Assembly: GCA_017381865.1 (NCBI GenBank)
Contig: JAFOBJ010000030.1
Location: 1 to 54,999 of the forward strand
Direction of reading: 5' to 3'
DNA: 54,999 nucleotides
Source of the DNA: Bacteroidales bacterium
GTDB lineage: Bacteria; Bacteroidota; Bacteroidia; Bacteroidales; F082
The notes beneath the pieces were generated by a model. It had not been told where the DNA came from, made no database searches, and worked only from the letters and a program-made list of their open reading frames with translations. The translations under genes and the position numbers were made by a program. Of the stretch, positions 6,283 through 54,645 are shown one piece after another. The stretch's first letter is position 1; every line of letters starts with the position of its first letter.

Positions 6283-6963
6283 ATGACATCTGTAAGAAAA
6301 CCCGATATTGAAGAACAATGGTATGCGGCTCTACGAAATGAATTCGAAGCACCATATTTTGCTGATATAAAGTCATTTCTTATTGAAGAGAAAAAACAAC
6401 ATATCGTATTTCCTCCATCACCTTTAATTTTCAATGCTTTCAACCTCACTCCTTTCGATGATGTTAAAGTAGTGATATTAGGACAAGACCCATATCATAA
6501 TGTCGGACAAGCTCACGGCTTGGCATTTTCTGTTCCAGACAATATACAAAAACCACCAAGCCTTATAAACATCTTCAAAGAATTGAATCAAGACTTGGGA
6601 CTGCCAATTCCTGCGCACGGCAACTTGGAGAAATGGGCTAAAGAAGGCGTCTTATTGCTCAACGCCTCTTTGACAGTAAGAGCTCATATGGCGGCATCGC
6701 ACGCCAAAATAGGCTGGCAGCGATTCACCGATGCCGCCATCAAAGCACTCTCTGATAATAGAGAAAACCTAGTCTTCATACTCTGGGGCAACTACGCCAT
6801 CGCTAAAGAAAACCTCATCGACCATAACAAACACCTCATACTGAAAACTGTCCACCCTTCCCCACTCTCCGCTTCACGAGGATTCTTCGGTTGTAAGCAT
6901 TTTTCAAAAACGAATGAATACCTTATAAAAAATAATATAAAACCTATAGATTGGAGTCTTTGA
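6283..6963 (+). CDS. ung: Uracil-DNA glycosylase, family 1
   Basis: Family 1 UDG (about 226 aa, close to the usual 220-230), which removes uracil from DNA in the first step of base excision repair. The water-activating motif is VVILGQDPYHN, with the catalytic Asp in QDPYH. The C-terminal substrate loop is HPSPLSASRGFFG, and AHGLAFSVP is also conserved. The frame is open one codon upstream to a TTG at 6280, but the ATG at 6283 is the more likely start. The stop codon overlaps the first base of a 7-nt repeat tract (6963-7047). It is probably a single gene. Confidence 0.95.
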   Translation: MTSVRKPDIEEQWYAALRNEFEAPYFADIKSFLIEEKKQHIVFPPSPLIFNAFNLTPFDDVKVVILGQDPYHNVGQAHGLAFSVPDNIQKPPSLINIFKELNQDLGLPIPAHGNLEKWAKEGVLLLNASLTVRAHMAASHAKIGWQRFTDAAIKALSDNRENLVFILWGNYAIAKENLIDHNKHLILKTVHPSPLSASRGFFGCKHFSKTNEYLIKNNIKPIDWSL

Positions 6964-7047
6964 AAGACTAAAGACTAAAGACTAAAGACTAAAGACTAAA
7001 GACCAAAGATTAAAGATTAAAGATTAAAGGCTAAAAGCTAAGGATAA
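6963..7047. repeat. 7-nt tandem word tract AAAGACT
   Basis: About 12 degenerate tandem copies of a heptamer: AAAGACT at the left, drifting through AAAGATT to AAAGGCT and AAAAGCT at the right. It begins on the last base of the ung stop codon. A reverse-complement relative is at 25951-25974. It belongs to the family of period 7-8 word tracts found in many spacers here. Confidence 0.9.
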
Positions 7048-7129
7048 AAAATAGAATTAATAAAAATATTAACATAAAAATTGGGCAATGACTGTCGGCT
7101 GTAGTCTGTTGTCCGTCGACTTAAATAAA

Positions 7130-7708
7130 ATGAAAAAATTAGTATTTGCAACACATAATGTTCATAAATTGGAAGAGCTTCGTGCTATCATAAAGAATTT
7201 TGATATCGTTGGTTTAACCGATATTAATTGCCATGAAGAAATCGTTGAAGACGCCGACACTTTAGACGGCAATGCTAAAATCAAGGCTGACTTCGTGACA
7301 AACAATTTCCATATCGACTGTTTCGCTGATGACACTGGTTTGGAAGTAGACGCTCTTGACGGCGCTCCTGGCGTTTATTCAGCTCGCTACGCTGGCGAAG
7401 GTTGTTCATACCAAGATAATGTTAATAAACTTTTAGAAGCCTTAGAAGGCGTCGAAAACCGCAGGGCTCGCTTCAGAACTGTCATCGCTCTTAACCTTAA
7501 CGGCGAACAGCATTTCTTTGAAGGTAAAGTGGAAGGCGTCATCACCAAAGAACAACACGGCGAAAAAGGCTTCGGCTACGACCCTATCTTCCTCCCAGAC
7601 GGATTTGACCAGACTTTCGCAGAGATGTCGATGGAAGTGAAAAACGAGATTTCTCACAGAGGAAGAGCGACTAAGAAACTTATAGAATTCTTAATTCATA
7701 ATGCATAA
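7130..7708 (+). CDS. rdgB: Non-canonical purine NTP pyrophosphatase (RdgB/HAM1)
   Basis: A HAM1/RdgB family enzyme (192 aa), which hydrolyses ITP, dITP and XTP to monophosphates to keep deaminated purines out of nucleic acids. Family signatures are the N-terminal FATHNVHKLEEL (nucleotide-binding T/SxN), the acidic core FADDTGLEVDALDGAPGVYS and the C-terminal GFGYDPIFLPDG and SHRGRA. The open frame extends to 7088, but those 14 extra codons are a spacer word tract (GTCTGTTGTCCGTCGACTT) with no homology to the family. The ATG at 7130 gives the canonical start MKKLVFATHN. It probably acts alongside ung, another guardian against deaminated bases. Confidence 0.94.
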   Translation: MKKLVFATHNVHKLEELRAIIKNFDIVGLTDINCHEEIVEDADTLDGNAKIKADFVTNNFHIDCFADDTGLEVDALDGAPGVYSARYAGEGCSYQDNVNKLLEALEGVENRRARFRTVIALNLNGEQHFFEGKVEGVITKEQHGEKGFGYDPIFLPDGFDQTFAEMSMEVKNEISHRGRATKKLIEFLIHNA

Positions 7709-7718
7709 TGCATAATTA

Positions 7719-7778
7719 TGTAGAGAGGTGTCAATTACACAATAAAAATTAACAATATGTAATTGCTGCGTCTCTGTA
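7719..7778. repeat. GTAGAGACG-family hairpin, copy 1
   Basis: Imperfect inverted repeat. The left arm 7719-7738 starts TGTAGAGAGGTGTCAATTAC; the right arm 7759-7778 reads GTAATTGCTGCGTCTCTGTA. Related hairpins are at 13691-13749, 16398-16456 and 53861-53917. Confidence 0.75.
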
Positions 7779-7810
7779 ATGAGGAATATTTTCATAACAT
7801 TTCATAATCT

Positions 7811-7869
7811 CTCGCAGAAACGCAAAGTATCGCAAAGTAATTCTCTGTGGCTCTTTGCGTCTCTGCGAG
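7811..7869. repeat. 17-bp inverted repeat of the CTTTGCGTCTCTGCGAG word
   Basis: The left arm 7811-7827 and right arm 7853-7869 are reverse complements with a single mismatch. Further copies of the same word lie near 8075-8095 and 15141-15170, so this is a recurrent repeat family, not a unique terminator. Confidence 0.8.
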
Positions 7870-7940
7870 AAGGAAAATCACTTCGAAAAGCTCAGCATCT
7901 TTGTTCAAAGCCCGCAGCTCGTTGCTCATCGCCGCCAATG

Positions 7941-8013
7941 CGTTAGGGATTGGAGCGGCATCCTTTTGGAGCGCAGCGGAAAAAGATATAGCGGAAAGCC
8001 CGACGGCAATAGC
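7941..8013 (+). other. Candidate structured intergenic element, GC-richer than surroundings
   Basis: This block contains GATTGGAGCGGCATCCTTTT, a short middle, then AAAAAGATATAGCGGAAAGC and a CCCG end. The halves can pair (CCTTTT with AAAAAG), and each side carries an AGCGG box. From memory, very similar paired boxes recur in spacers of many Bacteroidota, so it may be a conserved RNA or repeat element. The identity is not proven; Rfam entries for Bacteroidetes intergenic RNAs would be the place to test it. Confidence 0.4.
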
Positions 8014-8131
8014 CGGAACGCCCAGATAAAGTTGATAGTTAATAGTTAATAGTTGCTGGAAATTAATTTTGCGATACTCTGCGTCTCTGCGAGATAATTT
8101 ATGATTAGTGTTTATTCGTGCTAATTCGTGG

Positions 8132-8170: not shown

Positions 8171-10792
8171 TCAATTGTTAATTTTAGATTTCAAGATTTC
8201 CATTGCCTTGTCGATGCCGTCGACGTTTTTGCCACCTGCTGTAGCAAGTGTCTTCTGACCGCCGCCACCGCCTTGGATTTCCTTAGCAGCTTCTCTAATC
8301 ATCGCGCCAGCATCCCACTTGCGTTCGTCAACGAGTGACTGTGGAATCATAACGCATAACGCTGGTTTCGCTTCGAAGATACCGCCCATGAGAAGGATTG
8401 CTTCTGCGTCGATGTCTTTAACGGCTGTAGCAATAGTTCTCATCTGATTTACGTCAGCTTCAACGCGAGCAACGACCAACTTACGACCTTCGAAATCAAC
8501 AGCTGCGTTGTAGATATTGCGTGCTTCAGCGACAGCTTTTTCTTGCATCATCTGTTCAACTTTCTTTTGTAACATCTGATTTTGTGCGCTGAGGTTTTCA
8601 ATTGCCTTAATCAAGTCGCCTGATGTCTTGACGATTTCTTTAATCTTAGCGATTTGTTCCAATTGATTGTCGAGATAACACATCACGTCGTCGCCTGTGA
8701 CAGCTTCGATACGACGTACGCCAGCAGCGATTGCGCCTTCAGATAAAATCTTGAATGAACCGATGCGACCTGTTGAAGCGATATGTGTACCGCCGCAAAG
8801 CTCGACTGAATATTCCTTATCGAAAGCAACGACTCTCACATGGTCGCCGTATTTTTCGCCGAACAATGCCATAGCACCCATGTTCTTAGCTTCTTCAATA
8901 GGAACGTTTTCAAATGTATTATTTAAAATATCTTCTCTAATCTTTTCGTTGACGATTTTTTCAACTTGCTTGATTTCTTCGTCTGTCATCTTTGAGAAAT
9001 GGCTGAAGTCGAAACGAAGTCTTTCGTCATTTACCAAAGAACCTTTTTGCTCAACGTGATTACCCAAGACTTGACGTAATGCAGCGTGCATCAAGTGAGT
9101 TGTTGTGTGGTTAGCTTCGATTTTTCTTCTTCTCTTAACATCGATTGTTGCAACGAAGTCAGCCTCTGGTTCTTGAGGAATCATATCAGTGATATGGATG
9201 ATAAGGTCGTTTTCTTTAACTGTATTCAAAACCTTAACGACTTCATTTTCTGATGTGAGAGTACCGACGTCACCAACTTGACCACCCATTTCAGCGTAGA
9301 AAGGAGTTTGGTCTAAAACGATTTCATAATGTTTCTTATTCTTAGCAACGACTTCTCTGTAACGCATGATTTTAGAAGTTGTTGTCAATTCGTTATAGCC
9401 TTTGAATTCAGTTGCTTTGTCGTCTTCAACTACCACGATCCAGTCGCCTGATGATTTCTCAGCAGCTTTACGAGAGCGGTTCTTTTGTTCTTCGAGGTTT
9501 GCCTTGAAGCCTTCCATATCGACAGTAAGACCTTTTTCTTCTGCCATGAGGTTTGTCAAGTCAACAGGGAAACCGTAAGTGTCGAACAATTCGAAAGCGA
9601 AAGCGCCGTCGATGACTTTTGACTCTGGATTTTGTTCAACGTAAGACTCGAAACGACGGATACCTTGTGACAATGTTCTCAAGAATGAAGCTTCTTCTTC
9701 TTTGATAACCTTAGCGACGAGTTCTTGTTGTGACTTCAACTCTGGATATTGTTCGCCCATTTCTTGAACGAGAACAGGGAGAATTCTGTAAACAAATGGT
9801 TCTGTGAAACCTAAGAATGTGTATCCATAACGTACGGCACGACGTAAGACGCGGCGGATTACATAACCAGCGCCGTTGTTTGAAGGGAGCTGACCGTCGG
9901 CGACAGCGAAGCTGACAGCACGGAGGTGGTCGGCGATAACACGCATTGCGATATCGACCATTTCTTCTTTACCGTAAGCCTTGCCTGAGAGTTCAGCGAC
10001 TTTGTCGATTAAAGGAGTGAAGACGTCGGTGTCGTAGTTTGACTTTTTATTTTGGATGACGCGGACGAGACGTTCGAATCCCATACCTGTGTCGATGTGT
10101 TTCGCTGCGAGGTTCACAAGGCTACCGTTAGCCATACGGTTGAACTGCATGAAAACGAGGTTCCATATTTCAATGACTTCTGGATTGTCTTTGTTGACGA
10201 GTTCTTTACCGTCGACGAGTTTGCGTTGTTCTTCATCGCGGATGTCGATGTGGATTTCAGAACATGGACCGCAAGGACCTTGGTCGCCCATTTCCCAGAA
10301 GTTGTCTTTCTTGCTTCCGTAAATGATTCTTGACTCGTCGATATGTTCTTTCCAGTATTCGAAAGCTTCGTTATCAGCTTGAAGGTTATCTTTTTCGTCG
10401 CCGCCGAAAACTGTGACATATAATTTATTCTTGTCTATTTTCAATACTTCTGTGAGGAATTCCCATGCCCAAGCGATAGCTTCTTTCTTGAAATAATCGC
10501 CGAATGACCAGTTGCCCATCATCTCGAACATAGTGTGGTGATAAGTGTCGCGACCTACTTCTTCAAGGTCGTTGTGCTTACCAGATACGCGGAGACATTT
10601 TTGGATGTCGGCAACTCTGTTTGACTTATATTGAGCATTGCCCAAGAAAACGTCTTTAAACTGGTTCATACCTGCATTGGTAAACATCAATGTAGGGTCA
10701 TTTTTAACAACGATAGGAGCTGAAGCCACTACAAGGTGTTGTTTTGATTCAAAAAAATTCAAGAAACTGCTACGAATTTCACTTGCTTTCAT
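8171..10792 (-). CDS. alaS: Alanyl-tRNA synthetase
   Basis: Full-length class II alanyl-tRNA synthetase (873 aa, usual length 870-880). The N-terminal catalytic core starts MKASEIRSSFLNFFESKQH and carries class II motifs (TNAGMNQFKDVFLG; FEMMGNWSFGDYFKKEA). The editing domain has the zinc-binding HTTTH near residue 560 and CGGTH near 665, which clear Ser- and Gly-tRNA(Ala). The C-terminal coiled-coil and C-Ala domain end in a Gly-rich segment (EIQGGGGGQ) at about 840-845. It is divergent from the M23 peptidase gene, with a 114-base shared promoter region, and is followed by its own terminator. Confidence 0.97.
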   Translation of the reverse strand: MKASEIRSSFLNFFESKQHLVVASAPIVVKNDPTLMFTNAGMNQFKDVFLGNAQYKSNRVADIQKCLRVSGKHNDLEEVGRDTYHHTMFEMMGNWSFGDYFKKEAIAWAWEFLTEVLKIDKNKLYVTVFGGDEKDNLQADNEAFEYWKEHIDESRIIYGSKKDNFWEMGDQGPCGPCSEIHIDIRDEEQRKLVDGKELVNKDNPEVIEIWNLVFMQFNRMANGSLVNLAAKHIDTGMGFERLVRVIQNKKSNYDTDVFTPLIDKVAELSGKAYGKEEMVDIAMRVIADHLRAVSFAVADGQLPSNNGAGYVIRRVLRRAVRYGYTFLGFTEPFVYRILPVLVQEMGEQYPELKSQQELVAKVIKEEEASFLRTLSQGIRRFESYVEQNPESKVIDGAFAFELFDTYGFPVDLTNLMAEEKGLTVDMEGFKANLEEQKNRSRKAAEKSSGDWIVVVEDDKATEFKGYNELTTTSKIMRYREVVAKNKKHYEIVLDQTPFYAEMGGQVGDVGTLTSENEVVKVLNTVKENDLIIHITDMIPQEPEADFVATIDVKRRRKIEANHTTTHLMHAALRQVLGNHVEQKGSLVNDERLRFDFSHFSKMTDEEIKQVEKIVNEKIREDILNNTFENVPIEEAKNMGAMALFGEKYGDHVRVVAFDKEYSVELCGGTHIASTGRIGSFKILSEGAIAAGVRRIEAVTGDDVMCYLDNQLEQIAKIKEIVKTSGDLIKAIENLSAQNQMLQKKVEQMMQEKAVAEARNIYNAAVDFEGRKLVVARVEADVNQMRTIATAVKDIDAEAILLMGGIFEAKPALCVMIPQSLVDERKWDAGAMIREAAKEIQGGGGGQKTLATAGGKNVDGIDKAMEILKSKINN

Positions 10793-10832
10793 ATATAATA
10801 ATGTGTTTAAATTTATTCAAAAAACTTTTTTG

Positions 10833-10840
10833 CAAATTTA
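10833..10840 (-). promoter_or_regulatory. -7 box (TAAATTTG) for alaS
   Basis: Exact TAnnTTTG match on the minus strand, 40 bases before the alaS ATG and 14 bases from the opposite-strand box of the M23 gene. Confidence 0.5.
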
Positions 10841-10854
10841 GTTCAAAAAAATAT

Positions 10855-10862
10855 TATTTTTG
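10855..10862 (+). promoter_or_regulatory. -7 box (TATTTTTG) for the M23 peptidase gene
   Basis: Exact TAnnTTTG match, 44 bases before the ATG at 10907. With the alaS box it forms a compact divergent promoter pair. Confidence 0.55.
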
Positions 10863-10906
10863 CAGAATTGATGGAATATTTTTCATTTAATTTCAATTTT
10901 TAAACA

Positions 10907-13661: not shown

Positions 13662-13690
13662 AAAATTCCTCATACCCTTAATTCCTAACT

Positions 13691-13749: not shown

Positions 13750-13767
13750 ATATTTTCAGTTTTCAAT

Positions 13768-13802: not shown

Positions 13803-13842
13803 CCAATTATGCATTATGAATTATGAATTGATGTAATCGCTT

Positions 13843-15359: not shown

Positions 15360-16385
15360 TCAATTCCTCATCAAATAATTTCTCACATAATCCATCACTC
15401 CATCTTCCAAAGATGTGAATTCTTTATCGTATCCTGCTTCTCTCAGTTTCGTCATATTCGCTTCTGTGAAGTATTGGTATTTGTCTCTGATATCTTCTGG
15501 AATGTCGATAAACTCGATATTGACATCCTTTCCCATCGCCTTGAAAGTATTAGCAGCCAAATCATAAAAACTACGAGCCTTGCTTGTACCGAGATTGTAT
15601 AAACCACTTTTTAGGCTGTGGGCTGCGGGCTGTGAGCTGTGAGCTTCCATGGACAACGTCTTGTTGTCTTGTTGTCTTGTTGTCTTGTTATCTATCATGA
15701 AAATAATAACGCTCGCAATATCTTTCACATAAATGAAATCGCGCAACTGTTGTCCGTCTTTAAAGTCTGGGCGATGTGAACGAAAGAGCTTCACCTTTCC
15801 TGTAGCATTTATCTGATTGAATGAATGGAAAATGACAGACGCCATTCTTCCTTTGTGATATTCATTTGGTCCGTAGACGTTGAAAAACTTAAGTCCTGCC
15901 CAGAATGGAGGCTGCTTCTCTTGTTTCAAAATCCACTTATCGACTTCGTTCTTAGAGCGGCCGTAAGGATTAAGCGGCTGCAATTTTTCCACGACTTCAT
16001 AACTGTCGTCATAGCCTAATTCGCCGTTTCCATAAGTGGCAGCAGATGATGCATAAACCAAAGGTATCTGATATTCGGCGCATAAAGCAAACATCGTCTC
16101 GGTATAATCGACATTCAACTTTTGAAATATATTCCAGTCGAATTCTGTTGTGTCGGTGCGAGCTCCGAGGTGAACGACGAAATCTACTTCTTCATGATTT
16201 TCCTTAAACCAGTCAAAGAAAGTATTTCTGTCAACTAAAGACTTATATTTCAAGTCGATATAATTTCTCTCTTTTTCTTTCTTTGAAAAATCATCGACAA
16301 GAATCAAATCGTTATATCCTTTTTGATTAAGTTCCGCAGCTACTACACTGCCGATAAAACCCGCTGCACCTGTTACAACTATCAT
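15360..16385 (-). CDS. rfaD: ADP-L-glycero-D-manno-heptose-6-epimerase with in-frame repeat insertion
   Basis: A 341-aa extended short-chain dehydrogenase that epimerises ADP-heptose for LPS core synthesis. Visible are the Rossmann motif GAAGFIGS (6-13), YASSAATYG (111-119), the catalytic Y141-x3-K145 pair (YGRSK) and the family-specific KDGQQLRDFIYVKD. Normal length is about 310-320. The extra ~27 residues at 233-259 (NKTTRQQDNKTLSMEAHSS and on to HSLK) are encoded by tandem CTTGTTGT and GCTGTGG/GCTGTGA words at 15612-15693. They fall between the IIFMID helix and GLYNLGTSKA, a surface loop region, so activity may be kept. A hairpin separates the gene from the upstream rluD-like gene. Confidence 0.9.
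   Translation of the reverse strand: MIVVTGAAGFIGSVVAAELNQKGYNDLILVDDFSKKEKERNYIDLKYKSLVDRNTFFDWFKENHEEVDFVVHLGARTDTTEFDWNIFQKLNVDYTETMFALCAEYQIPLVYASSAATYGNGELGYDDSYEVVEKLQPLNPYGRSKNEVDKWILKQEKQPPFWAGLKFFNVYGPNEYHKGRMASVIFHSFNQINATGKVKLFRSHRPDFKDGQQLRDFIYVKDIASVIIFMIDNKTTRQQDNKTLSMEAHSSQPAAHSLKSGLYNLGTSKARSFYDLAANTFKAMGKDVNIEFIDIPEDIRDKYQYFTEANMTKLREAGYDKEFTSLEDGVMDYVRNYLMRN
15612..15693. repeat. Word tract inside rfaD (periods 7 and 8)
   Basis: Four GCTGTGG-type heptamers (about 15615-15645), then after a 15-base link about four copies of CTTGTTGT (15659-15690). Both word families also occur in spacers (14819-14842; 49199-49230). Here they are translated in frame. Confidence 0.85.
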
Positions 16386-25943: not shown

Positions 25944-25950
25944 ATAAAAA

Positions 25951-26070
25951 GACTAAAGTCTAAAGTCTAATGACAAAAGTTTTTTTTAGCTTTGAGCAAT
26001 GAGCTTTGAGCAATGATATAAACTACTTTAAACTTTCAACAACTCTAAACTATACACTATAAACTTTCAA
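25951..26070. repeat. Word tracts in the rsfS-birA divergent spacer
   Basis: GACTAAAGTCTAAAGTCTAA (period 7) is followed by two copies of AGCTTTGAGCAATG (period 14, a doubled heptamer), then a degenerate TAAACTTTCAAC tract. It resembles tracts at 6963, 28393 and 43402. Confidence 0.75.
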
Positions 26071-26078
26071 CTTTTTCT

Positions 26079-26090: not shown

Positions 26091-26846
26091 ATGAAAATCA
26101 CTCGTTTTAAAACATTAGAATCAACTAACGCTTACCTTCAAAATCTTCTTAACGAAGGCGTTGATATTGTCGACAACATCGTAGTCACTGACTTTCAGAC
26201 TTCAGGCAAAGGTCAAGGCAAAAACGTATGGCAAAGCGAAGACGGCAAGAACCTGCTTTTCAGCATCGCTCTCGATATGAGTTTCCTAAAAGCAGAAAAC
26301 CAATTCCTCTTGACGCAGATGATTTCCGTTGCTATGATTAATGTTTTAAAGAAATATCTTCCGGAAGAATCACTATTCATCAAATGGCCTAACGACATTT
26401 ATTTCAACAGCAAGAAAATCGCTGGCATTTTGATAAAAAACGAAATCAAAGGAATGATGATGGGAACTTCTATCATCGGAATCGGTCTGAATGTAAATCA
26501 GACATCTTTTGATGATAATCTCCCTAATCCAATTTCTATGAAGATGATAACGGGAAATGATTTTAACTTGGAAACTATCTTAAATGACATTTGCCTTGAG
26601 CTACGAGCTATCAGTCAACAATCAATGGTCAATGGTCAACAGTCAATGGTCAACAGTCAATGGTCAACAGTCAATGGTTACATAAAACATCTATATCGTT
26701 ACCAGCAATGGGCTTCCTACGAACACGAAGGCGTTGTTAAAGAAATGATGATTATCGGCTACGACCAATTCGGACGACTTTTATTAAAAGAAAAAAACGA
26801 CCGAGAAGTCGTTTGCGATTTGAAAGAAATATCTTTTAAAGTGTAG
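26091..26846 (+). CDS. birA: Biotin--[acetyl-CoA carboxylase] ligase with in-frame repeat insertion
   Basis: A 251-aa monofunctional biotin protein ligase that attaches biotin to carboxylase carrier domains. It lacks the N-terminal DNA-binding domain of E. coli BirA, so it is not a repressor. Core motifs are the substrate loop QTSGKGQGKNVWQS (a GRGRxGR variant), KWPNDIYFNSKKIAGILIKN and IIGIGLNVNQ. At about residues 174-196 the chain reads QQSMVNG, QQSMVNS, QWSTVNG, three 7-residue units that come from nine 7-nt words (26611-26679) read through three frames. The word also occurs in spacers. The insert lies after the catalytic core, before the C-terminal SH3-like part, and may be tolerated. 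The gene ends in TAG. Confidence 0.9.
   Translation: MKITRFKTLESTNAYLQNLLNEGVDIVDNIVVTDFQTSGKGQGKNVWQSEDGKNLLFSIALDMSFLKAENQFLLTQMISVAMINVLKKYLPEESLFIKWPNDIYFNSKKIAGILIKNEIKGMMMGTSIIGIGLNVNQTSFDDNLPNPISMKMITGNDFNLETILNDICLELRAISQQSMVNGQQSMVNSQWSTVNGYIKHLYRYQQWASYEHEGVVKEMMIIGYDQFGRLLLKEKNDREVVCDLKEISFKV
26611..26679. repeat. 7-nt word tract inside birA
   Basis: Tandem heptamers alternating AGTCAAC and GGTCAAT-type words, about nine copies. Seven-nt period with three-nt codons gives a 21-nt, 7-residue protein period. Relatives are at 33974-34014 and 53821-53858 and in part at 43925-43962. Confidence 0.9.
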
Positions 26847-33973: not shown

Positions 33974-34014
33974 ATGGTCAACAGTCAATGGTCAACAGTC
34001 AACAGTCAATGGTC
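33974..34014. repeat. 7-nt word tract before the patatin gene
   Basis: Tandem heptamers of the GTCAACA / GTCAATG family, about six copies, ending beside the ATG at 34016. They create an open frame reading VNSQW and STVNSQW in the leader. Confidence 0.88.
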
Positions 34015-34015
34015 G

Positions 34016-36244
34016 ATGGCAAAGGTTCGCAGCTCTTTGCTTACGATTTTTGTCTTTTGCCTTTTGTCCTTTGCCTTTTGTCATAACGCTATGGCGCAAC
34101 AAGCCAACGATTCTTTAATGAGACCTCGTGTTGGTGTTGTATTGAGTGGCGGCGGTGCCAAAGGATTCGCCCATATCGGAGCTATTAAAGTTATAGAAGA
34201 AGCGGGATTACCAATAGATTTCATTGCAGGAACCAGTATGGGCAGCATCATTGGCGGACTTTACGCCATTGGTTATTCTCCTGAAACAATGATACGACTT
34301 ATCAAGGAACAAAATTGGGATATGATAATGTCGGATGCCATTCCTTTAAAATACATTTCCATCGACGACAAAATACTAGACAGACACTATCTTGCGACAT
34401 TCCCGTTCAGAAACAAAAAGATACAAATGAAGTCATCCATTTACGATGGTGGCATGATAAACCTTTTGCTGGCACGACTCACCTCCCCTGCTTATAAGAT
34501 AAAAGACTTCAATAAATTGTCGATACCATTTTTGTGTGTTGCTACAAACATTGAAAATGCCGAAGCATACGAAATGACAAGAGGCAACCTGCAACGTTCA
34601 ATAAGAGCTTCAATGTCAATACCTTTCTATTTCTCTCCAATTGAAATTGATGGTCGTTTGCTTGTTGACGGCGGATTAAGAAACAACTTCCCTGTTCCTA
34701 ATGCAAGAGAAAAAGGCGTGGATATTATAATAGGTGTTGATGTACAACGTAATTTCCATACTAAAGACGAAATTACTTCCATGGCAATAATAATGGATCA
34801 GATTATCGCAATGTCTGACATTGACGCATATACAAGAGCGAAAAAAGATGCCGACATCTATATAAAGCCAGATCTCACAAAATATGGCATGATGGATTTC
34901 AATTCTTACGACACTATTATTGCACTTGGCGAAAATGCTGCACGAGAATATCTTCCACAATTAAAACTTCTCGCAGACTCTATAAAAAACATTCAAGATT
35001 ATAAAATAGAACGACCTAATGTAGAACCACTTGATTCAATATATGTAGTAACGTTGAAAATCAATGGAGTAAATGAGGAAAATGCCAACTTCATAAGAAA
35101 GTCTATCGGCAAAAGCTACCCATCGAAAATAGCGATTCACGATATTGAGTCGGCTATTATGAGCATCTATGCGACAGGATATTATAAAGATATTTGGTAT
35201 GATCTCGTTCCAGCCACTAAAGGTGCTAACTTAGTGATTCACTGCAAAGAAAAAGAAGAAGAATCAGTATCAATAGCAGCTCATTACGACACTGATTATG
35301 GCATTGGAATATTAGCGAACATAACACTTAAAAACATTCTAAGTTTTCCTAGACGCTCAACATTGTCAGCCGACATCAACATTGCTGAAGATCCATATTT
35401 TAAGCTCCGTTTACATTCAGGATTGTCTCAGAAATTCAAATATGGAATTGACATGTCGGCAATAAGCCTTTTTATGAACCAATATTACGACAAGACCATC
35501 AATAATTCCTATAGTGTTCAAGACAACAAGATAGATTTATTTGTGGAATACATGCCTACTTTGGTACAACAATTCAGAATTGGCATCGTCGGTAATTATG
35601 TTCATCTCAGGGATAATCTTATCCACATTGTTGGTCCAAACCACTACGACTTCATCACTCATGCATATTTTAATTATCATATTGATAATGAAGACTCTCC
35701 AAGTTTTGCTTCAAGAGGATGGAAATTAAACATCAATGGTAAGTACATAATTCCAGTTGCAAAACTCAGCGACGGCATGCAGGCAGGACATTCCATTATA
35801 TTAAGGGCAGACTTAGACGGAGCCATTGCGATAAAGAAAAAACATTCACTGAAATTAGGAGCTACCATCGGTTCTTCTATTACAATAAACGAGCCTCCTT
35901 TAAGTTATCGTTTCTTTGTAGGAGGTCAGTCGCATATGAAATATTTCGACAACATAATATCCTTTGAAGGATTGAGATTCACACAGTTATATGGCGACCA
36001 CATAGCTATAGGAAAAATATCGTGGCAATATAATTTTTACGGAAATTTGTATGCTATTGCAAACTTCAACGGAGGATATATAACCAGCAATTATAGTGAA
36101 TGGTTTAATAGTGAAAGTTTTGTATTCGGCGGAGGTTTGACATTAGGAATGAAAACGATGGCTGGTCCTATTGAAGTCAGCATAATGGGTTCCAACAGAT
36201 GTTCCAGTGTAATCGGATTTTTTAACATAGGTTATTGGTTTTAA
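34016..36244 (+). CDS. Patatin-like phospholipase with BamA-like barrel
   Basis: A 742-aa protein pairing an N-terminal patatin lipase with a C-terminal outer-membrane barrel, the PlpD-like arrangement. It has a signal peptide (about 1-28, ending NAMAQ). The lipase motifs are the oxyanion GGGAKG near 45, the nucleophile GTSMG near 72 and the catalytic Asp in DGGLRNNFP near 218. A POTRA-like region at about 340-410 leads to 16-strand BamA/Omp85-type segments, ending in Trp-Phe, as barrel proteins do. The open frame begins at 33974 with 14 codons of word tract; the ATG at 34016 starts the real signal peptide. It probably acts on outer-membrane or secreted lipids. Confidence 0.88.
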   Translation: MAKVRSSLLTIFVFCLLSFAFCHNAMAQQANDSLMRPRVGVVLSGGGAKGFAHIGAIKVIEEAGLPIDFIAGTSMGSIIGGLYAIGYSPETMIRLIKEQNWDMIMSDAIPLKYISIDDKILDRHYLATFPFRNKKIQMKSSIYDGGMINLLLARLTSPAYKIKDFNKLSIPFLCVATNIENAEAYEMTRGNLQRSIRASMSIPFYFSPIEIDGRLLVDGGLRNNFPVPNAREKGVDIIIGVDVQRNFHTKDEITSMAIIMDQIIAMSDIDAYTRAKKDADIYIKPDLTKYGMMDFNSYDTIIALGENAAREYLPQLKLLADSIKNIQDYKIERPNVEPLDSIYVVTLKINGVNEENANFIRKSIGKSYPSKIAIHDIESAIMSIYATGYYKDIWYDLVPATKGANLVIHCKEKEEESVSIAAHYDTDYGIGILANITLKNILSFPRRSTLSADINIAEDPYFKLRLHSGLSQKFKYGIDMSAISLFMNQYYDKTINNSYSVQDNKIDLFVEYMPTLVQQFRIGIVGNYVHLRDNLIHIVGPNHYDFITHAYFNYHIDNEDSPSFASRGWKLNINGKYIIPVAKLSDGMQAGHSIILRADLDGAIAIKKKHSLKLGATIGSSITINEPPLSYRFFVGGQSHMKYFDNIISFEGLRFTQLYGDHIAIGKISWQYNFYGNLYAIANFNGGYITSNYSEWFNSESFVFGGGLTLGMKTMAGPIEVSIMGSNRCSSVIGFFNIGYWF

Positions 36245-39474: not shown

Positions 39475-39519
39475 GAACTAAGAACTAAGAACTAAGAACT
39501 ATGACCGCTGATAGCTGAT
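39475..39519. repeat. Word tract at the left junction of the phage fragment
   Basis: GAACTAA heptamers followed by CTGATAG heptamers. The tape-measure coding sequence stops matching at the edge of this tract (about 39519). Confidence 0.75.
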
Positions 39520-39875
39520 AGCTTGTAACTCTCAACAGAAGAAGCTGCATCAGTGCCGAATGTTTTGGCAGTATCACGAGCATAACTTTCAATTTCTTTC
39601 AGCTTGTCTCCCGTGACACCAGCAATAGCGGATAAGTCCATCAAGGAGGTGTTTAAGGCAATGCCAGGTTGGATAGCAGAGGAGAAAACATCTCTAAAAG
39701 ATCGGATTGTTTGAGTTATTTGTTGAAATGCAAATAAACTTTCACCAACATCTTTTAAAGATGAAGTTGCTTCCTTAGCTTCTTTACTTACATTAGCTAT
39801 ATTTTTAGCAATATTAATAGTAGCATCTGTCGCATTTCCGAAAATGTTAAAATTTATGTTGACAGTTTGATTCAT
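39492..39875 (-). pseudogene. Phage tail tape-measure protein, truncated N-terminal fragment
   Basis: A 127-codon minus-strand frame starting MNQTVNINFNIFGNATDATI. The heptad-rich segment (NIAKNIANVSKEAKEATSS) and the core SLMDLSAIAGVTGDKLKEIE, ARDTAKTFGTDA and SVESYKL are typical of TP901-type tape-measure proteins, which normally run to many hundreds of residues. After SYKL the frame enters the word tract and ends 8 codons later. Only about the first 119 residues remain, so the gene is broken. Upstream lies the chaperone pair expected just before a tape-measure gene, which supports the call. Confidence 0.75.
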
Positions 39876-40404: not shown

Positions 40405-43401
40405 ATGAGAAAGTTAGTTTTTACATTATTAGTCATTCTTTCATTTTGTAATTTAGGTCTCACACAAAACACCATCGAGCCTAGATTACATGAAATTTTA
40501 AATCAAAAAGGCGATGAGATGATAAGTGTTAACATCATCTTAAAATCGCAAATGAATTTTAACAAATTAAGAAACAGAGCGGAAAACATCACTGATAAAG
40601 ATGTAAAACGCAATGTATTAGTTGGTGAACTTAAAAATTTCGCAGAGAAAGAACAACAAGAAATATTGTCGATTCTCAATGCTGAGCAAAGAAGCAACAA
40701 AGTAGAAAATGTAAGTAGCCATTGGCTTGCGAATTACATCAATTGCACTACGACACGCGATGTGATTTATCAATTAGCTCAACATCCTGATGTTCTTCTC
40801 ATCGGATATAACGAAGAAAAAGTCTTGATTAGCAACAACTATTCAGAAAGAGCTGAAGGCGTAAGTGGCATGACAGAAAATATTACCAAGGTCAATGCCG
40901 ACGATATCTGGACTATGGGTTATACTGGCGAAGGCATTATCGTAGCCGTCATCGACTCTGGTGTCAACTACAAACACGTTGACGTTGCCGACCACTTATG
41001 GGACGGTGGAGCAGAATTCCCATATCACGGCTACAACACATATGACGGCAACAACAACCCAATGGACAAATTCGGTCACGGTTCACATTGTGCGGGAACC
41101 ATCTGCGGCGACGGCACTTCCGGCACTAAAACAGGCATTGCTCCTAATGCGACTTTGATGTGCGTCAAAAGTGTCAGCGACGAAGGAACAGGAACTGCGC
41201 ACAATATCAACAGCGGTATGGAATGGGCTGTAGAACACAATGCCGATGTGTTAAGCATGTCGTTAGGTGTCACAATGCCAGACCCTTCTGAAAAAGTAAT
41301 GTTACGTCGCAGTTGTGTGACAGCCTTAGAATTAGGCGTTGTTGCAGCTGTTGCAGCAGGCAACTATGGTGGCAACGAATATATGATGATAAAACCTATT
41401 CCAGAAAACGTCATCATTCCTGGCGGCTGTCCTCCTCCATGGTTAAGCCCAGAACAAGAAGCCAATGCCGGAGGATTGTCATGCGTCGTCTCTGTAGGCG
41501 CCGTCGATTACAACGACAATCCAGCTGATTTCTCTTCAAACGGTCCTGTCACATGGGAAAACTCAGAATTCAACGACTATGTATATAATAACGGAGAATC
41601 AATCGGTCTCATTCGCCCTGACATCTGTGCGCCAGGCGTATCAATCATTTCCCTCGACTATTCTTCAAACATCGGTCACACTTCAATGAACGGCACTTCA
41701 ATGGCAACACCATGCGTTGCTGGAATCATGTGTCTCATGCTAGAAAAAGACCCAAGCCTCACCCCTGCCGACATCTGCAGAATATTAGAAACAACAAGTG
41801 TAAAACTAACTGAAACAAAAAGCAATAAGACAGGTACAGGTCGCGTCGACGCTTTGGCAGCGATGAATGCAATAGATAACGGCAAATTCAACTTCGTAAA
41901 ATGTGCTATCAATGATAAAAACGGCAATGACAACCAAAACATCAATGCCGGCGAAAACGTAAATATCAATATCACTTTCAATAATGCTTACGAAGAAAAC
42001 TTCAGCAATGTGAAAGCTGTCTTGAGAAACAAAAACAAATCTGTCACAATAACAGATTCTATCGCTCAAATTGAAAATATCAATGCCAATGAAAATATTA
42101 CGATAGAAAATGTGTTTGCAGTGACATTAGATGAAAACGTTGCTGCAAAGACATTACTTGCATTCGATGTTTATTTCTACAACGAAAACGACGAGCAAAT
42201 CGCATATCTGAGAGCTCCAGCTTACGTTTGCGGCTCTGATATCCAGTTTTCTTCTTTCATCATCAAAAACGACAACAACGGCAACGGATTACTCGAAGCT
42301 GGCGAAACAGCAGACCTCGGCATCGTTTTGAATAATATCGGCAATGAAATTGCAGTCGGATTAAAAGGCGTTATCTCAACAACAAACAGCAAACTAACTA
42401 TAAACACTTCTGAAGCTGAATTCAACAGCATCGGCGAAAACGCATCAGCAGTGGCTTTATTCAACGTTACATTAGCAGAAAATGCTGGCGACAACTTCAA
42501 ACTTCCTATCGAGATAAATGTCAGCGACGCTTTCAACAACACTTACAAATTTGAAGGCACTTACAAGAAAGCTTGTGAAATATCATTCGAGCTTTATGAC
42601 ACTAGCGGCGACGGCTGGAACAAAGCTGCTTTAGTTGTTAAATACAGCGATGGCACTCCTGACGAAGCATTCACAATCCTCGATGGCAAAACAAAGACAT
42701 ATAAACGTAAAATCGCAAATGATGTTGAAGTGACATTAGAATGGGTAAAAGGCTCTTGGGACTTAGAAAACAGCTTTATCATCAAAAATGAAAACGGCAA
42801 CGTCATATATCAAGACGGAGGATTCCTTAACAACGGATTCATCTATTCTTGGATTAACAATTGTTCTTGCCTCAACAACAGCTTCGACATGTGCGAGCCT
42901 ATCGATAACCTCAAAGCCGACGTAAACAAAAACAGCGTTATCTTGACATGGACAGTCTCTAACGACCAAGAATTTATCAAATACGAAATATATCGTGACA
43001 CAAAATATTTAGGAGAAACTGACGGTTTGTCATTCGTAGACAGCAACATAGAACATAACAGAGCATTCTCTTACACTTACAGCGTGAGACCTGTTTACGA
43101 AGATTGCAACGGTTCTTTCAAAAGCATACTAGCTCAATGGGGCGTAAATGTTAACGAATATTCACATAATGCAAACGTCAATATCTATCCAAATCCTGCA
43201 AACGACAAAATTTATATCGTAGCAGAAACGGAAATCGAAGACGTTGTCGTTTATGATGTTTACGGAAGACTACAAGACTACAAGACTACAAGACTACAAG
43301 GTAGTGTAACAGTTGATGTAACTAAATTAAACGCTGGAATTTATTTCATTAAGATTAATACAAACGAAGGTAATATAGTTAAAAGAATTATTAAGCAATA
43401 A
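40405..43401 (+). CDS. Subtilisin-like (S8) secreted protease with T9SS sorting domain
   Basis: A 998-aa surface serine protease. It has a signal peptide (about 1-20) and a propeptide at about 21-150. The S8 catalytic domain has Asp 184 (VAVIDSGVNY), His 225 (GHGSHCAGTICGDG) and Ser 432 (NGTSMATPCVAG). Two beta-sandwich regions follow (ENDGNGNGLLEAGE-like repeats), then a TSGDGWNKAALVVKY domain, a fibronectin-like domain and a T9SS type A sorting domain (VNIYPNPANDKIY, YDVYGR, LNAGIYFIKI). Four exact copies of GACTACAA (43268-43299) run through the sorting domain at about residues 955-965. The gene has its own promoter. It is a close paralogue of the next gene. Confidence 0.92.
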   Translation: MRKLVFTLLVILSFCNLGLTQNTIEPRLHEILNQKGDEMISVNIILKSQMNFNKLRNRAENITDKDVKRNVLVGELKNFAEKEQQEILSILNAEQRSNKVENVSSHWLANYINCTTTRDVIYQLAQHPDVLLIGYNEEKVLISNNYSERAEGVSGMTENITKVNADDIWTMGYTGEGIIVAVIDSGVNYKHVDVADHLWDGGAEFPYHGYNTYDGNNNPMDKFGHGSHCAGTICGDGTSGTKTGIAPNATLMCVKSVSDEGTGTAHNINSGMEWAVEHNADVLSMSLGVTMPDPSEKVMLRRSCVTALELGVVAAVAAGNYGGNEYMMIKPIPENVIIPGGCPPPWLSPEQEANAGGLSCVVSVGAVDYNDNPADFSSNGPVTWENSEFNDYVYNNGESIGLIRPDICAPGVSIISLDYSSNIGHTSMNGTSMATPCVAGIMCLMLEKDPSLTPADICRILETTSVKLTETKSNKTGTGRVDALAAMNAIDNGKFNFVKCAINDKNGNDNQNINAGENVNINITFNNAYEENFSNVKAVLRNKNKSVTITDSIAQIENINANENITIENVFAVTLDENVAAKTLLAFDVYFYNENDEQIAYLRAPAYVCGSDIQFSSFIIKNDNNGNGLLEAGETADLGIVLNNIGNEIAVGLKGVISTTNSKLTINTSEAEFNSIGENASAVALFNVTLAENAGDNFKLPIEINVSDAFNNTYKFEGTYKKACEISFELYDTSGDGWNKAALVVKYSDGTPDEAFTILDGKTKTYKRKIANDVEVTLEWVKGSWDLENSFIIKNENGNVIYQDGGFLNNGFIYSWINNCSCLNNSFDMCEPIDNLKADVNKNSVILTWTVSNDQEFIKYEIYRDTKYLGETDGLSFVDSNIEHNRAFSYTYSVRPVYEDCNGSFKSILAQWGVNVNEYSHNANVNIYPNPANDKIYIVAETEIEDVVVYDVYGRLQDYKTTRLQGSVTVDVTKLNAGIYFIKINTNEGNIVKRIIKQ
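43268..43299. repeat. 8-nt tandem repeat (4 copies) inside the subtilase 1 sorting domain
   Basis: Four perfect copies of GACTACAA. The unit is not a multiple of three, so any change of one or two copies would shift the reading frame before the end of the sorting domain. Confidence 0.95.
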
Positions 43402-46550: not shown

Positions 46551-46566
46551 TAGCATCTAATAACTA

Positions 46567-46838: not shown

Positions 46839-46841
46839 GTT

Positions 46842-52149: not shown

Positions 52150-52250
52150 TTGAACTAAGAACTAAGAACTAAGAACTTTAAGCTTTGAACTTTGAACCCT
52201 GAACCAAAAAAATAAAAGTTCTTAGTTCAGGGTTCAATAGCCTTAGTTCA
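52150..52250. repeat. Inverted word tracts after guaB
   Basis: GAACTAA heptamers and CTTTGAA words on the left, with TTTGAACCCTGAAC facing GTTCAGGGTTCAA on the right (13-bp arms about 52187-52232). This can form a large hairpin and may act as the guaB terminator. Confidence 0.7.
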
Positions 52251-53730: not shown

Positions 53731-53771
53731 AATTATTATTTTTTTGAAAATTATAAACTATATAAATTGGG

Positions 53772-53779
53772 CAAAGATA
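53772..53779 (-). promoter_or_regulatory. -7 box (TATCTTTG) for guaB
   Basis: Exact TAnnTTTG match on the minus strand, 41 bases before the guaB ATG. Confidence 0.55.
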
Positions 53780-53786
53780 AGAAAAA

Positions 53787-53858
53787 ACTTTGAACTAAGA
53801 ACTCCGAACCTTGAACTTTTTTTGACCGTTGACTTTTGACTGTTGACCATTGACCAAA
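53787..53858. repeat. Word tracts upstream of guaB
   Basis: CTTTGAACTAAGAACTCCGA words followed by GTTGACTTTTGACTGTTGAC heptamers, the reverse complement of the word inside birA and before the patatin gene. Confidence 0.8.
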
Positions 53859-53860
53859 AA

Positions 53861-53917
53861 GAAAGACGCATCAATTACACCTTGTTCATTTCATCGGTGT
53901 AATTGACACGTCTCTAC
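53861..53917. repeat. GTAGAGACG-family hairpin, copy 4
   Basis: Left arm AAGACGCATCAATTACACC (53863-53881), right arm GGTGTAATTGACACGTCTCT (53896-53915) plus AC. Nearly perfect pairing over 19 bases with a 14-base loop. Confidence 0.85.
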
Positions 53918-53949
53918 TTGGTGTCTTGGCGACTTAGTGTCTTGGAGTC

Positions 53950-54537
53950 TTATAATCTCACCGACAAAGAAAGTCCCGTGTTATCAAATGTATAACCGAA
54001 TTTTGTATTGACGATAGATGATGTTCTTCCGTAAAACAAACCAAGTGACACTCTTTCACTTATATCAAAATCAACTTCAAACATTCCACCAAGACAGGCC
54101 GCCAGATACATATTCGTATAAGGAACATAATTACCAGCATAGCTATAGCTGTATTTTGTCTGCGCATGATTTACTAAACCTCCCGTAAGCGAAAGTTTAA
54201 GATTCATAAAATCGAAGCATTTGACTTTTCCTCTCACGCCTATTTGCAAAGCATTGCTATAATACATCGGATCTACAAAAGGATCAATATCTTGATAACC
54301 ATTATATGTCGTAAATGCTGCTACAACATCCAAGTTGTTTATCAAACCATAAGCATACCTCATATCGAAGCTCATTCCTTTTACAAGATTTTCCACTGAA
54401 GGAAATGAAGTAGCATCACTGATAGAAAGTCCAGTCTTGACTTCCAAATAATGTGCGCCTTTGTTAGTTTTTTCAGACTGCGCCATAGCTAATGCAGGCA
54501 CTACCGCCAACACCAACAACAATAAATATCTTTTCAT
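53950..54537 (-). CDS. Outer-membrane beta-barrel protein
   Basis: A 195-aa exported protein. MKRYLLLLVLAVVPALAMAQ is a signal peptide and fixes the start at 54537; the frame extends 9 codons further upstream. The mature part alternates polar and hydrophobic residues in strand-like segments (HYLEVKTGLSISDAT; DMRYAYGLINNLDVVAAFTT; RVSLGLFYGRTSSIV) and ends FDNTGLSLSVRL, a typical C-terminal barrel strand. It is probably an 8-strand OmpA/OmpW-like barrel of unknown function. A TTGGTGTCTTGGCGACTTAG tract sits just downstream of its stop. Confidence 0.75.
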   Translation of the reverse strand: MKRYLLLLVLAVVPALAMAQSEKTNKGAHYLEVKTGLSISDATSFPSVENLVKGMSFDMRYAYGLINNLDVVAAFTTYNGYQDIDPFVDPMYYSNALQIGVRGKVKCFDFMNLKLSLTGGLVNHAQTKYSYSYAGNYVPYTNMYLAACLGGMFEVDFDISERVSLGLFYGRTSSIVNTKFGYTFDNTGLSLSVRL

Positions 54538-54602
54538 GATTTTAATGTTTAATGAATTTAACAAATAATTATCATGCTGATAACGGAAGATATTGTATTG
54601 TA

Positions 54603-54645
54603 TTGTATTTTTTTACTATTGACTATTGACCATCGACCGTTGCAT
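54603..54645. repeat. Word tract between the barrel gene and the BRO-like gene
   Basis: TTGACTATTGACCATCGACC, heptamers of the GTTGACC/ATTGACT family already seen at 53821 and in birA, preceded by TTGTATTGTATTG pentamers (54592-54608). Confidence 0.7.

What the first reader, a model, noticed from the sequence alone, without database searches (positions are those of the whole stretch)
6963..54645. Window-wide family of period 7-8 word tracts in spacers
At least ten spacers hold degenerate tandem tracts of 7- or 8-nt words. About ten word families recur: AAAGACT, GAACTAA, GTCAATG, GCTGTGA, CTGACAG, AGTAACTT, ACTTCATA, CTTGTTGT, TTTGCGTC, TTGGTGAC. Some words occur in both orientations within one spacer and pair into hairpins (7811-7869, 15295-15324, 40321-40350, 52187-52232). 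Copies drift gradually along a tract, as if made by local slippage or templated extension. No transposase or classical repeat class explains them. A dedicated mechanism (terminal-transferase-like synthesis, repeat-primed repair or rolling slippage) is possible.
Basis: partly seen in the sequence, partly recalled or inferred. Interest (0 to 1): 0.75.

Follow-up and report, generated by a model that had tools for sequence, protein, structure and literature searches.

The report
Dispersed 7- and 8-base repeat tracts
A group of uncultured gut-type Bacteroidales carries many short tracts of repeated 7- or 8-base words in gene spacers, at gene ends and even in some protein loops; the words are shared across the genome, and a given place can keep a tract while its word changes between species, which is an unusual form of a known class of bacterial simple-sequence repeats.

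Summary
The window has 18 tracts of period 7, 8 or 14; shuffles have none. A 254-kb sample of the same genome has 122, against 12 of other periods. Four of the window's tracts lie inside three genes, not in spacers.

Congeners (75-91% DNA identity) show how tracts evolve. At one site they differ by whole 7-base units. Elsewhere the place keeps a tract but the word, even the period, often differs: 19 of 74 orthologous pairs have words within one mismatch, against 264 of 2296 non-orthologous comparisons, so words are inherited in part and turn over fast. One imperfect 32-mer has 24 copies in this genome, mostly with unrelated flanks, so tracts also spread. A tract follows the 3' end of 25 of 33 Flavo-1 RNA elements, against 6 of 33 at the 5' side.

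Best reading: a clade-specific burst of known heptamer/octamer simple-sequence repeats, spreading by ectopic copying, changing by slippage and drift, kept where harmless or useful. Reverse transcriptase and Y1 transposase show no association; mutS1 is present throughout. New variant of a known kind.

The parts
6963..7041 (+). AAAGACT x ~11 (7-nt), starting at the stop codon of the UDG-family gene 6280-6963
   Evidence: orthologous site holds AAGACAAC (8-nt) in G080, a GGCTAAT-to-GACTAAA drifting tract in G063, GACAACAG-type words in G072 and G064
7686..7717 (+). AATTCAT-type tract over the stop codon of the Ham1-family gene 7088-7708
   Evidence: G064 has the dispersed 32-mer at the same stop
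7926..8009 (+). Flavo-1 RNA element (RF01705)
   Evidence: 42.7 bits against cut-off 42; 35 hits in this genome
8030..8054 (+). AGTTAAT tract, 3' tail of the Flavo-1 element
13806..13829 (-). AATTCAT-type tract 13 nt 3' of the stop of the gene 13843-14838
15614..15693 (-). GCTGTGA (7-nt) and GTCTTGTT (8-nt) tracts, in-frame insert in a loop of the NAD-dependent epimerase 15360-16385
   Evidence: seven congeners have tracts at the same loop (three of six scored against the window are within one mismatch of a window word), one has another repeat, one an insert without a tract, three the short loop
21614..21645 (.). ACTTCATA (8-nt) tract 16 nt before the start at 21662
   Evidence: orthologous spacer has CTGTAGA (G063), GACTCGGT (G062) or no tract (G076, G080, G064)
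25948..26074 (.). three tracts (AAAGTCT, AGCTTTGAGCAATG, AACTATA) between genes 25540-25938 and 26091-26846
   Evidence: G076 and G064 have GACAACA-type words there, G063 and G062 no tract
26614..26678 (+). GTCAATG/GTCAACA tract, in-frame in the biotin/lipoate protein ligase 26091-26846
   Evidence: five congeners have other words or combinations at the same loop
30450..30492 (+). AGTAACTT (8-nt) tract just before the SecA start at 30500
   Evidence: no tract in the four congeners compared
33977..34082 (+). GTCAACA and TTTTGTCCTTTGCC tracts at the 5' end of the patatin/Omp85 frame; the called start at 33974 is at the edge of the tract and may not be the true start
39475..39523 (-). GAACTAA tract over the stop of the frame 39492-39875, next to a terminator-like hairpin of the convergent gene
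43266..43300 (+). AAGACTAC (8-nt) tract in the Por-secretion tail of gene 40405-43401
   Evidence: same place in a tandem set of five Por-tail paralogues on another contig (L090)
52152..52205 (.). GAACTAA/GAACTTT/GAACCCT drifting tract
53822..53856 (.). TTGACCG/TTGACTG/TTGACCA tract
53916..53952 (-). ACTTAGTG/TCTTGGAG tract (16-nt unit in Tandem Repeats Finder) reaching the stop of the gene 53950-54564; below my own threshold
7811..7869 (.). hairpin made of TTTGCGTC / GACGCAAA words
   Evidence: -31.2 kcal/mol, z -8.3

Best explanation
These are long simple-sequence repeats with 7- or 8-nt units that have multiplied in one clade of a Bacteroidales genus. SHOWN: (a) the excess is confined to periods 7, 8 and 14; (b) words are shared among unrelated loci, and one imperfect 32-mer is present in 24 exact copies; (c) at one orthologous site tracts differ by whole units; (d) an orthologous place often keeps a tract while the word and even the period differ, although orthologous words are more alike than words of other places; (e) tracts sit at stop codons, at a fixed short distance 3' of Flavo-1 RNA elements, in spacers, and in-frame in enzyme loops. 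INFERRED: short stretches of tract DNA are at times copied from locus to locus by ectopic recombination or template switching at short homologies; each tract then grows and shrinks by replication slippage, drifts by point mutation, and can be overwritten; selection removes copies except where an insert is harmless, or possibly useful as an RNA 3' end.
For: Periods. Word sharing: identical words in 6.5% of own-own pairs of 7-mers against 0.39% after letter permutation, 8-mers 5.1% against 0.16%; own-sister 3.0% and 1.5% against 0.33% and 0.11%. The 32-mer: 24 copies in G000, 19 more in six sister species, none in the other 92 of 99 genomes searched, none for the reversed control; of 351 pairs among 27 copies, 333 have unrelated flanks on both sides, 17 share one flank (14 of them a Flavo-1 element), 1 both. 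Imperfect 28-mers shared between loci: 30 pairs against at most 18 in 40 unit-permuted sets. Unit changes: G076 -1, G078 -1, G009 +1 unit at the L157 site. Change of word at a kept place: tract in both in 13 spacer comparisons with the window, word within one mismatch in 2; with the two enzyme loops added, 5 of 24; orthologous Flavo-1 with GTTACTGA in G000 and AAGACAAC in G080, flanks 89% and 84% identical. Placement: 71% of tract bases lie outside called genes, which leave 11% of the sequence; 33% of 103 non-coding tracts lie within 10 nt of a stop against 13% of random intergenic placements, 7% against 14.5% for starts.
Against: Orthologous tracts are more alike than non-orthologous ones (mean local score 0.425 against 0.247; words within one mismatch 19 of 74 against 264 of 2296), so part of the word change is gradual drift in place, which needs no copying. 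Shared variant patterns beyond the AATTATG family are not clearly above the permutation controls (7-mers other than AATTATG: 2 pairs of 28-mers, null maximum 3; 8-mers: 6, unit-permuted maximum 5, column-permuted maximum 7), and in the AATTATG family the excess shows at 28 nt (22 pairs, maximum 13) but not against unit permutation at 21 nt (77, maximum 78) or 24 nt (57, maximum 58). Within-species homogeneity is modest: 20.4% against 12.9% at one mismatch (0 of 500 permutations reach it), not significant for identical words (71 of 500). No insertion boundary or target duplication was seen. Words as different as GTTACTGA and AAGACAAC offer little homology for gene conversion. Ectopic copying was not observed directly.
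Confidence: 0.45

Rival explanations
1. Purely local origin: every tract arises and turns over in place by slippage and drift from resident seeds, and shared words reflect only sequence preference of the polymerase (7-8 nt as its contact length, the idea of Mrazek and colleagues as cited in PMC4679880).
For: Whole-unit differences; mismatch grows with distance between units; orthologous words are more alike than others, and several sites share a seed, such as AAAGAC at 6963; period 7/8 excess also in unrelated, patchily distributed Bacteroidota loci with other words.
Against: 24 exact copies of one imperfect 32-mer, mostly at unrelated loci; word sharing 17- to 32-fold above letter permutation within the genome but only 3-fold (7-mers) or absent (8-mers, 0 of 972) with distant Bacteroidota; tails of an orthologous Flavo-1 with very different words.
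Confidence: 0.27
2. Selected RNA 3'-end element: a 7/8-nt periodic, unstructured, oriented tract is wanted after stop codons and after Flavo-1 RNA (landing pad for an RNA-binding protein, nuclease or termination factor), and the exact word matters little.
For: Tract in 25 of 33 Flavo-1 3' flanks against 6 of 33 5' flanks and 291 of 1240 random intergenic stretches; linker 4-7 nt in 18 of the 26 tails with a tract within 90 nt, and fixed orientation (tetramers AGTT 39:3, CATA 27:0, repeated within tracts); tail kept while its word changes; 17 of 27 copies of the 32-mer are oriented the same way at a stop codon, 1 the other way; the two tracts folded are less structured than most of their shuffles.
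Against: Many tracts lie elsewhere, including in-frame loops; stop-adjacent tracts have more G than C in sense (660 against 340), against Rho utilisation sites; where the stop lies in the tract, orientation is partly forced because the frame ends at the tract's first stop; 76 of 220 tracts are stop-adjacent.
Confidence: 0.18
3. Dedicated synthesis: a reverse transcriptase, primase or terminal-transferase-like enzyme adds repeat tails at RNA-linked DNA ends, much as non-LTR retroelements carry short tandem 3' tails (the comparison is from memory).
For: Geometry of the Flavo-1 tail; Flavo-1 expansion limited to the clade that is tract-rich.
Against: RVT_1 hits are absent from this genome, G078, G080 and G027 (79-91% complete); a tail can change under an inherited element, so it is not simply fixed at insertion. 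Primases and transferases were not searched.
Confidence: 0.05
4. Assembly or binning artefact.
For: The genomes are draft assemblies, and several contigs begin or end inside a tract (L089, L091, L105, L108).
Against: Same tract, same site, plus or minus one unit in four separate assemblies; in-frame maintenance in two enzymes across congeners.
Confidence: 0.02

Closest known systems
Long simple-sequence repeats with heptanucleotide units (Mrazek et al. 2007; not held; seen only as cited in PMC4679880 and PMC4692102)
   Same: Tandem units of 5-11 nt with 7 the commonest; patchy across taxa; polymerase slippage proposed
   Different: Here 7 and 8 are of similar frequency, 20 word clusters of each length coexist in this genome and its sisters, and words often differ at orthologous places
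GGGAATC / GGGGATT heptamer repeats of Xanthomonas and Nostoc (Rehm et al. 2015, PMC4692102; passages and section 13 read)
   Same: Genome-wide heptamers, over-represented in non-coding DNA; [quoted passage not shown] places kept between species with length and sequence variation
   Different: One G-rich word type per genome that can form quadruplexes (there also within 50 bp upstream on the non-coding strand); here many mostly AT-rich words, and octamers as well
TAACTGA direct repeats of Beggiatoaceae, Cyanobacteria and a few Bacteroidetes (MacGregor 2015, PMC4679880; abstract and three sections read)
   Same: Intergenic heptamers including Bacteroidetes; indels mostly in 7-nt steps; mixtures with other heptamers in Microcystis
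   Different: One main word, in BOGUAY mostly just upstream of start codons; here starts are avoided and stops preferred
Dispersed elements of four tandem heptamers or octamers in Geobacter metallireducens (PMC2700814; passages read)
   Same: Short dispersed tracts of four or five heptamer or octamer units, 16 to 49 sequences per class, some within genes
   Different: Read there as regulator-binding sites or regulatory RNA elements; no word replacement reported in the passages read
Flavo-1 RNA motif, RF01705 (Weinberg et al. 2010, PMC2864571; table row read)
   Same: The window element passes the family cut-off
   Different: The 7/8-nt 3' tail and the 6 to 42 hits per genome in this clade are not mentioned in the passages I read; PMC9723704 (one passage) reports Flavo-1 hits in sense and antisense without clear function

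Membership tests
Long simple-sequence repeats (7/8-nt units) | Tandem short units in excess of composition-matched expectation | tested here: met
Long simple-sequence repeats (7/8-nt units) | Length change by whole units | tested here: met
   one site in four species; five paralogues in L090 keep the same length
Long simple-sequence repeats (7/8-nt units) | Enrichment outside coding sequence | tested here: met
   37 of 140 tracts still lie mostly in called ORFs
REP/RAYT elements | Palindromic unit with a Y1 transposase associated | tested here: not met
   the two tracts folded are unstructured; Y1_Tnp in 6 of 11 rich and 7 of 14 poor genomes
MITE | Terminal inverted repeats and target duplication | tested here: inconclusive
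   flanks of 27 copies of the 32-mer were inspected by eye: no shared ends beyond AATT and no duplication evident; three alignable orthologues of the L155 site lack the 32-mer but give no clean empty site
Non-LTR retroelement / SINE with tandem 3' tail | Defined element with a short tandem tail at its 3' end | tested here: met
   Flavo-1: 25 of 33
Non-LTR retroelement / SINE with tandem 3' tail | A reverse transcriptase available in the genome | tested here: not met
   no RVT_1 hit in G000, G078, G080, G027; genomes 79-91% complete; the other seven genomes of the clade have one or more
Phase-variation contingency loci | Tract length switches expression of the adjacent gene | not testable with these tools
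   needs strain or read-level data
Quadruplex-forming heptamers (Xanthomonas type) | G runs of 3 or more in the tandem unit | tested here: not met
   of the 18 seven-base clusters listed only GGCTGTG (5 tracts) and GGGTCAT (1) give GGG in tandem, 6 of 131 tracts; none of the 18 listed eight-base clusters does

The most novel reading that the evidence does not exclude
The clade has an active process tied to RNA 3' ends (stop codons and Flavo-1 RNA) that keeps laying down oriented 7/8-nt periodic tracts and overwrites their words in place, so that period and position are maintained while the sequence is free. Flavo-1 with its tail would then be a bacterial analogue of a tailed short interspersed element, working without a recognisable reverse transcriptase.
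Probability: 0.1. Interest if true: 0.88.

Novelty: new variant of a known kind. Interest (0 to 1): 0.57.

Why it matters
Why bacterial simple repeats favour seven- and eight-base units is an old open question. This clade offers ten congeners with 75-91% DNA identity at a reference locus in which tracts can be compared place by place (by extrapolation of 4.5 per 10 kb, several hundred per genome), separating slippage, copying between loci and replacement. It also gives the unexplained Flavo-1 RNA a new, testable feature: a repeat tail whose presence can be kept while its word changes.

Tried and rejected
Cyanobacterial STRR repeats: my first guess from memory; dropped because the host is a Bacteroidales metagenome-assembled genome.

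Rho utilisation sites as the function of stop-adjacent tracts: rejected, sense strands have more G than C.

Transition-dominated copying: an early note of mine said that transitions dominate; the count is 343 transitions to 283 transversions between neighbouring units, only a mild excess.

Complete word replacement at every site: my first reading (2 of 13). The check shows that orthologous words are more alike than others, so the claim was softened, and confidence was moved from the copying reading (0.5 to 0.45) to the local one (0.2 to 0.27); the 3'-end rival went from 0.2 to 0.18 and the novel case from 0.12 to 0.1.

Orientation at stop codons as evidence of function: partly circular, because a frame that runs into a tract ends at the tract's first stop; 7 copies of the 32-mer have the stop before the tract, all in one orientation (my count from the listing).

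Driver genes: reverse transcriptase, Y1 transposase, loss of mutS1; none separates tract-rich from tract-poor genomes. Other genes were not scanned.

Flavo-1 as a general driver: eight distant or less related loci (133 kb), six of them the tract-rich ones L028, L038, L054, L067, L075 and L082, hold no Flavo-1 hit over the cut-off, so tracts can exist without it nearby.

Strong species-specific homogenisation: only modest.

Covariation in the GAGACG..CGTCTC hairpins: weak, own genome 63 of 80 arm positions paired against 51 when arms are swapped, n = 8; sisters 38 of 60 against 30, n = 6.

Literature: eight searches of the open PMC library listed no report that I recognised of word replacement at fixed sites in Bacteroidales or of repeat tails on Flavo-1; I read abstracts, passages or single sections of five papers; most subscription papers are not held.


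Full report
WHAT WAS CHECKED. The window is contig C21 of a 2.12-Mb, 79%-complete assembly in 99 contigs. Gene content (BatD, a Por secretion tail) and the best named matches of its alanyl-tRNA synthetase (Bacteroidales isolate RGIG7249, 97% amino-acid identity, water-buffalo caecum; Lentimicrobiaceae isolate SIG105, 87%) place it in Bacteroidales.

My lag scan finds 18 tracts of period 7, 8 or 14 in the window and none in five Markov-1 shuffles. In 254,331 bases from 20 other contigs there are 122 such tracts (64, 50 and 8) against 12 of all other periods, and none of period 7/8/14 in three shuffles. The contigs were chosen by number; none was among those hit by the 21-mer. Tandem Repeats Finder agrees. 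The four hairpins of the finding fold.

NOT ONLY SPACERS. Called genes leave 11% of the sequence, which holds 71% of tract bases; 37 of 140 tracts are nevertheless mostly inside called ORFs. Two window cases are well supported by homologues: a loop of an NAD-dependent epimerase (15614-15693) and a loop of a biotin/lipoate protein ligase (26614-26678). At the epimerase loop seven congeners carry in-frame tracts, G071 a different repeat, G027 an insert without a tract, and G026, G117 and G099 the short loop; at the ligase loop all five congeners compared carry tracts.

SHARED VOCABULARY. The 131 seven-base and 89 eight-base tracts of the sampled DNA of this genome (309 kb with the window) and its sisters (242 kb) fall into 20 clusters each, led by AATTATG (38), GTCAACA (17), AGTTAGG (13), AAGACTAC (21) and AGAATCTG (10). 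Two tracts from different own contigs have the same 7-mer word in 6.5% of pairs against 0.39% after permuting letters, and the same 8-mer in 5.1% against 0.16%; against distant Bacteroidota the excess is small (7-mers 0.66% against 0.22%; 8-mers none of 972). The imperfect 32-mer AATTATGAATTATGCATTATGAATTATGAATT has 24 exact copies in this genome, 7 in G064, 3 each in G072 and G080, 2 each in G009, G076 and G063, and none in the other 92 of 99 genomes searched; the reversed control has none. All 24 own copies and 3 of the 7 from G064 were read. In 17 of 27 the copy begins within -16 to +6 nt of the stop codon of an upstream gene in one orientation, in 1 in the other; 6 lie directly 3' of a Flavo-1 element; 3 are elsewhere (counted from the listing). 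Of 351 pairs of copies, 333 have no related flank within 60 nt, 17 share one flank and 1 both; 15 of these 18 pairs are among the six Flavo-1 copies. Shared imperfect 28-mers exceed permutation overall (30 pairs, null maximum 18), but this comes from the AATTATG family (22 pairs, null maximum 13), and in that family the excess over unit permutation is lost at 21 and 24 nt; for other words it is not clear at 28 nt.

HOW SITES CHANGE. At the L157 site G076, G078 and G009 share the tract with -1, -1 and +1 unit relative to G000; G062, G071 and G072 have other words at the same place and G080 has none. Over the window's spacers, tract in both: 13 comparisons; window only: 11; sister only: 15; neither: 67 (odds ratio 5.3, Fisher p 0.001, comparisons not independent). 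The word is within one mismatch in 2 of 13. A wider check with all species pairs and the two enzyme loops gives 74 orthologous pairs: words within one mismatch in 19 (26%) against 264 of 2296 non-orthologous comparisons (11.5%), mean normalised local alignment score 0.425 against 0.247, score 0.6 or more in 24% against 4%. So orthologous tracts keep a trace of common descent, while about three quarters of pairs no longer align well; several sites share a seed at one end (AAAGAC at 6963, AAAAGTC at 25948) and differ further along. Some spacers carry no tract in any genome compared, for example 10792-10906 (185-192 nt in eleven genomes) and 20499-20594 (166-171 nt in nine, 203 in G062). Five tandem Por-tail paralogues keep the same length of the AAGACTAC tract with point changes only, while a 6-nt repeat beside it varies in length.

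THE FLAVO-1 LINK. RF01705 hits (E <= 0.001) number 35 in G000, 42 in G009, 42 in G078, 36 in G080, 35 in G064, 33 in G063, 25 in G076, 9 in G072, 8 in G027, 6 each in G062 and G071, and 1 each in G061 and G069; the other 86 of 99 have none (at most 42 candidates were scored per genome, so high counts are lower bounds). The first eleven are the window's genome and the ten closest to it at the alanyl-tRNA synthetase locus (75-91% DNA identity). Their tract density in the fetched stretches is 2.0 to 6.0 per 10 kb in eight, 4 tracts in 33 kb in G027 (one of two stretches), none in a 4.4-kb stretch of G080 and none in the 5.2 kb held for G078. Twenty-three stretches of other congeners, 453 kb, have 19 tracts in all, about one-tenth of the own density of 4.5 per 10 kb. 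Of 33 Flavo-1 copies, 20 were picked from the listed hits, spread over eleven genomes and without sight of their flanks, and 13 were met in loci taken for other reasons. A 7/8-nt tract of score >=10 lies within 75 nt 3' in 25, 5' in 6, and in 291 of 1240 random intergenic stretches; at score >=12 the counts are 22, 3 and 238; periods 5, 6, 9 and 10 give none on the 3' side. In 26 tails with a tract within 90 nt it begins 4-7 nt after the GCC end in 18. At one locus Flavo-1 is orthologous in G000 and G080 (flanks 89% identical over 558 nt and 84% over 440 nt), yet the tail is GTTACTGA in one and AAGACAAC in the other. This is one clear case; it shows that a tail can change under an inherited element.

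WHAT DOES NOT DRIVE IT. RVT_1 is found in 56 of 99 congeners but not in G000, G078, G080 or G027. Y1_Tnp: 6 of 11 rich and 7 of 14 other genomes. mutS1: 25 of 25 (24 over the cut-off; one match runs off a contig end).

INTERPRETATION. The tracts belong to the known class of long simple-sequence repeats with 7/8-nt units. Slippage is shown; dispersal is shown for one 32-mer and inferred for other words; change of word at a kept place is shown, in part gradual and in part complete, and its mechanism is not known. Whether placement at stop codons and behind Flavo-1 reflects tolerance or use as RNA 3' ends cannot be decided from sequence. The closest published case, heptamers in Xanthomonas and Nostoc, has the same stop-codon preference (PMC4692102, section 13) and keeps places between species (passage), which argues for a general phenomenon; many words, octamers as common as heptamers, in-frame loops and Flavo-1 tails are what this clade adds.

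LIMITS. The congeners compared are draft assemblies, several of them incomplete; gene calls are simple ORF calls; orthologous comparisons share history and are not independent; about 290 kb (14%) of the own genome was analysed besides the window; no strain-level data were available.

Noticed in passing
window 7926-8009 and 35 Rfam hits in the genome: Flavo-1 RNA (RF01705) is a dispersed multi-copy element in eleven related genomes; two of the other 88 congeners have one hit each.
   Followed up: yes
window 13690-13760, 16386-16458, 53862-53920; loci L102, L106, L119, L124: Dispersed hairpin GAGACGYGTCAAY..RTTGACGCGTCTC whose inner stem varies between copies; about 0.25 per 10 kb in this clade against 0.02 in other congeners; support for covariation is weak.
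   Followed up: partly
window 46565-46845: Four tandem copies of a 68-nt unit made of 10-nt words (TTTCGTGGTA, ACACTAATCT).
   Followed up: no
L090 7312-20000: Tandem set of Por-tail proteins whose C-terminal tails are much more alike than the stretches before them, suggesting gene conversion of the sorting tail; each carries the AAGACTAC tract in the tail.
   Followed up: partly
L028, L038, L054, L067, L075, L082: Unrelated Bacteroidota loci are also rich in 7/8-nt tracts with their own words, e.g. CACTTGTC in L054.
   Followed up: partly
window 7811-7869, 8080-8100, 15145-15175: TCTTTGCGTCTCTGCGAG-type words, another dispersed spacer repeat with a strong hairpin at the first place.
   Followed up: no
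window 10792-10906 and 20499-20594: Spacers of nearly constant length without tracts in the congeners compared (one G062 copy of the second is longer), perhaps promoter regions under selection.
   Followed up: no
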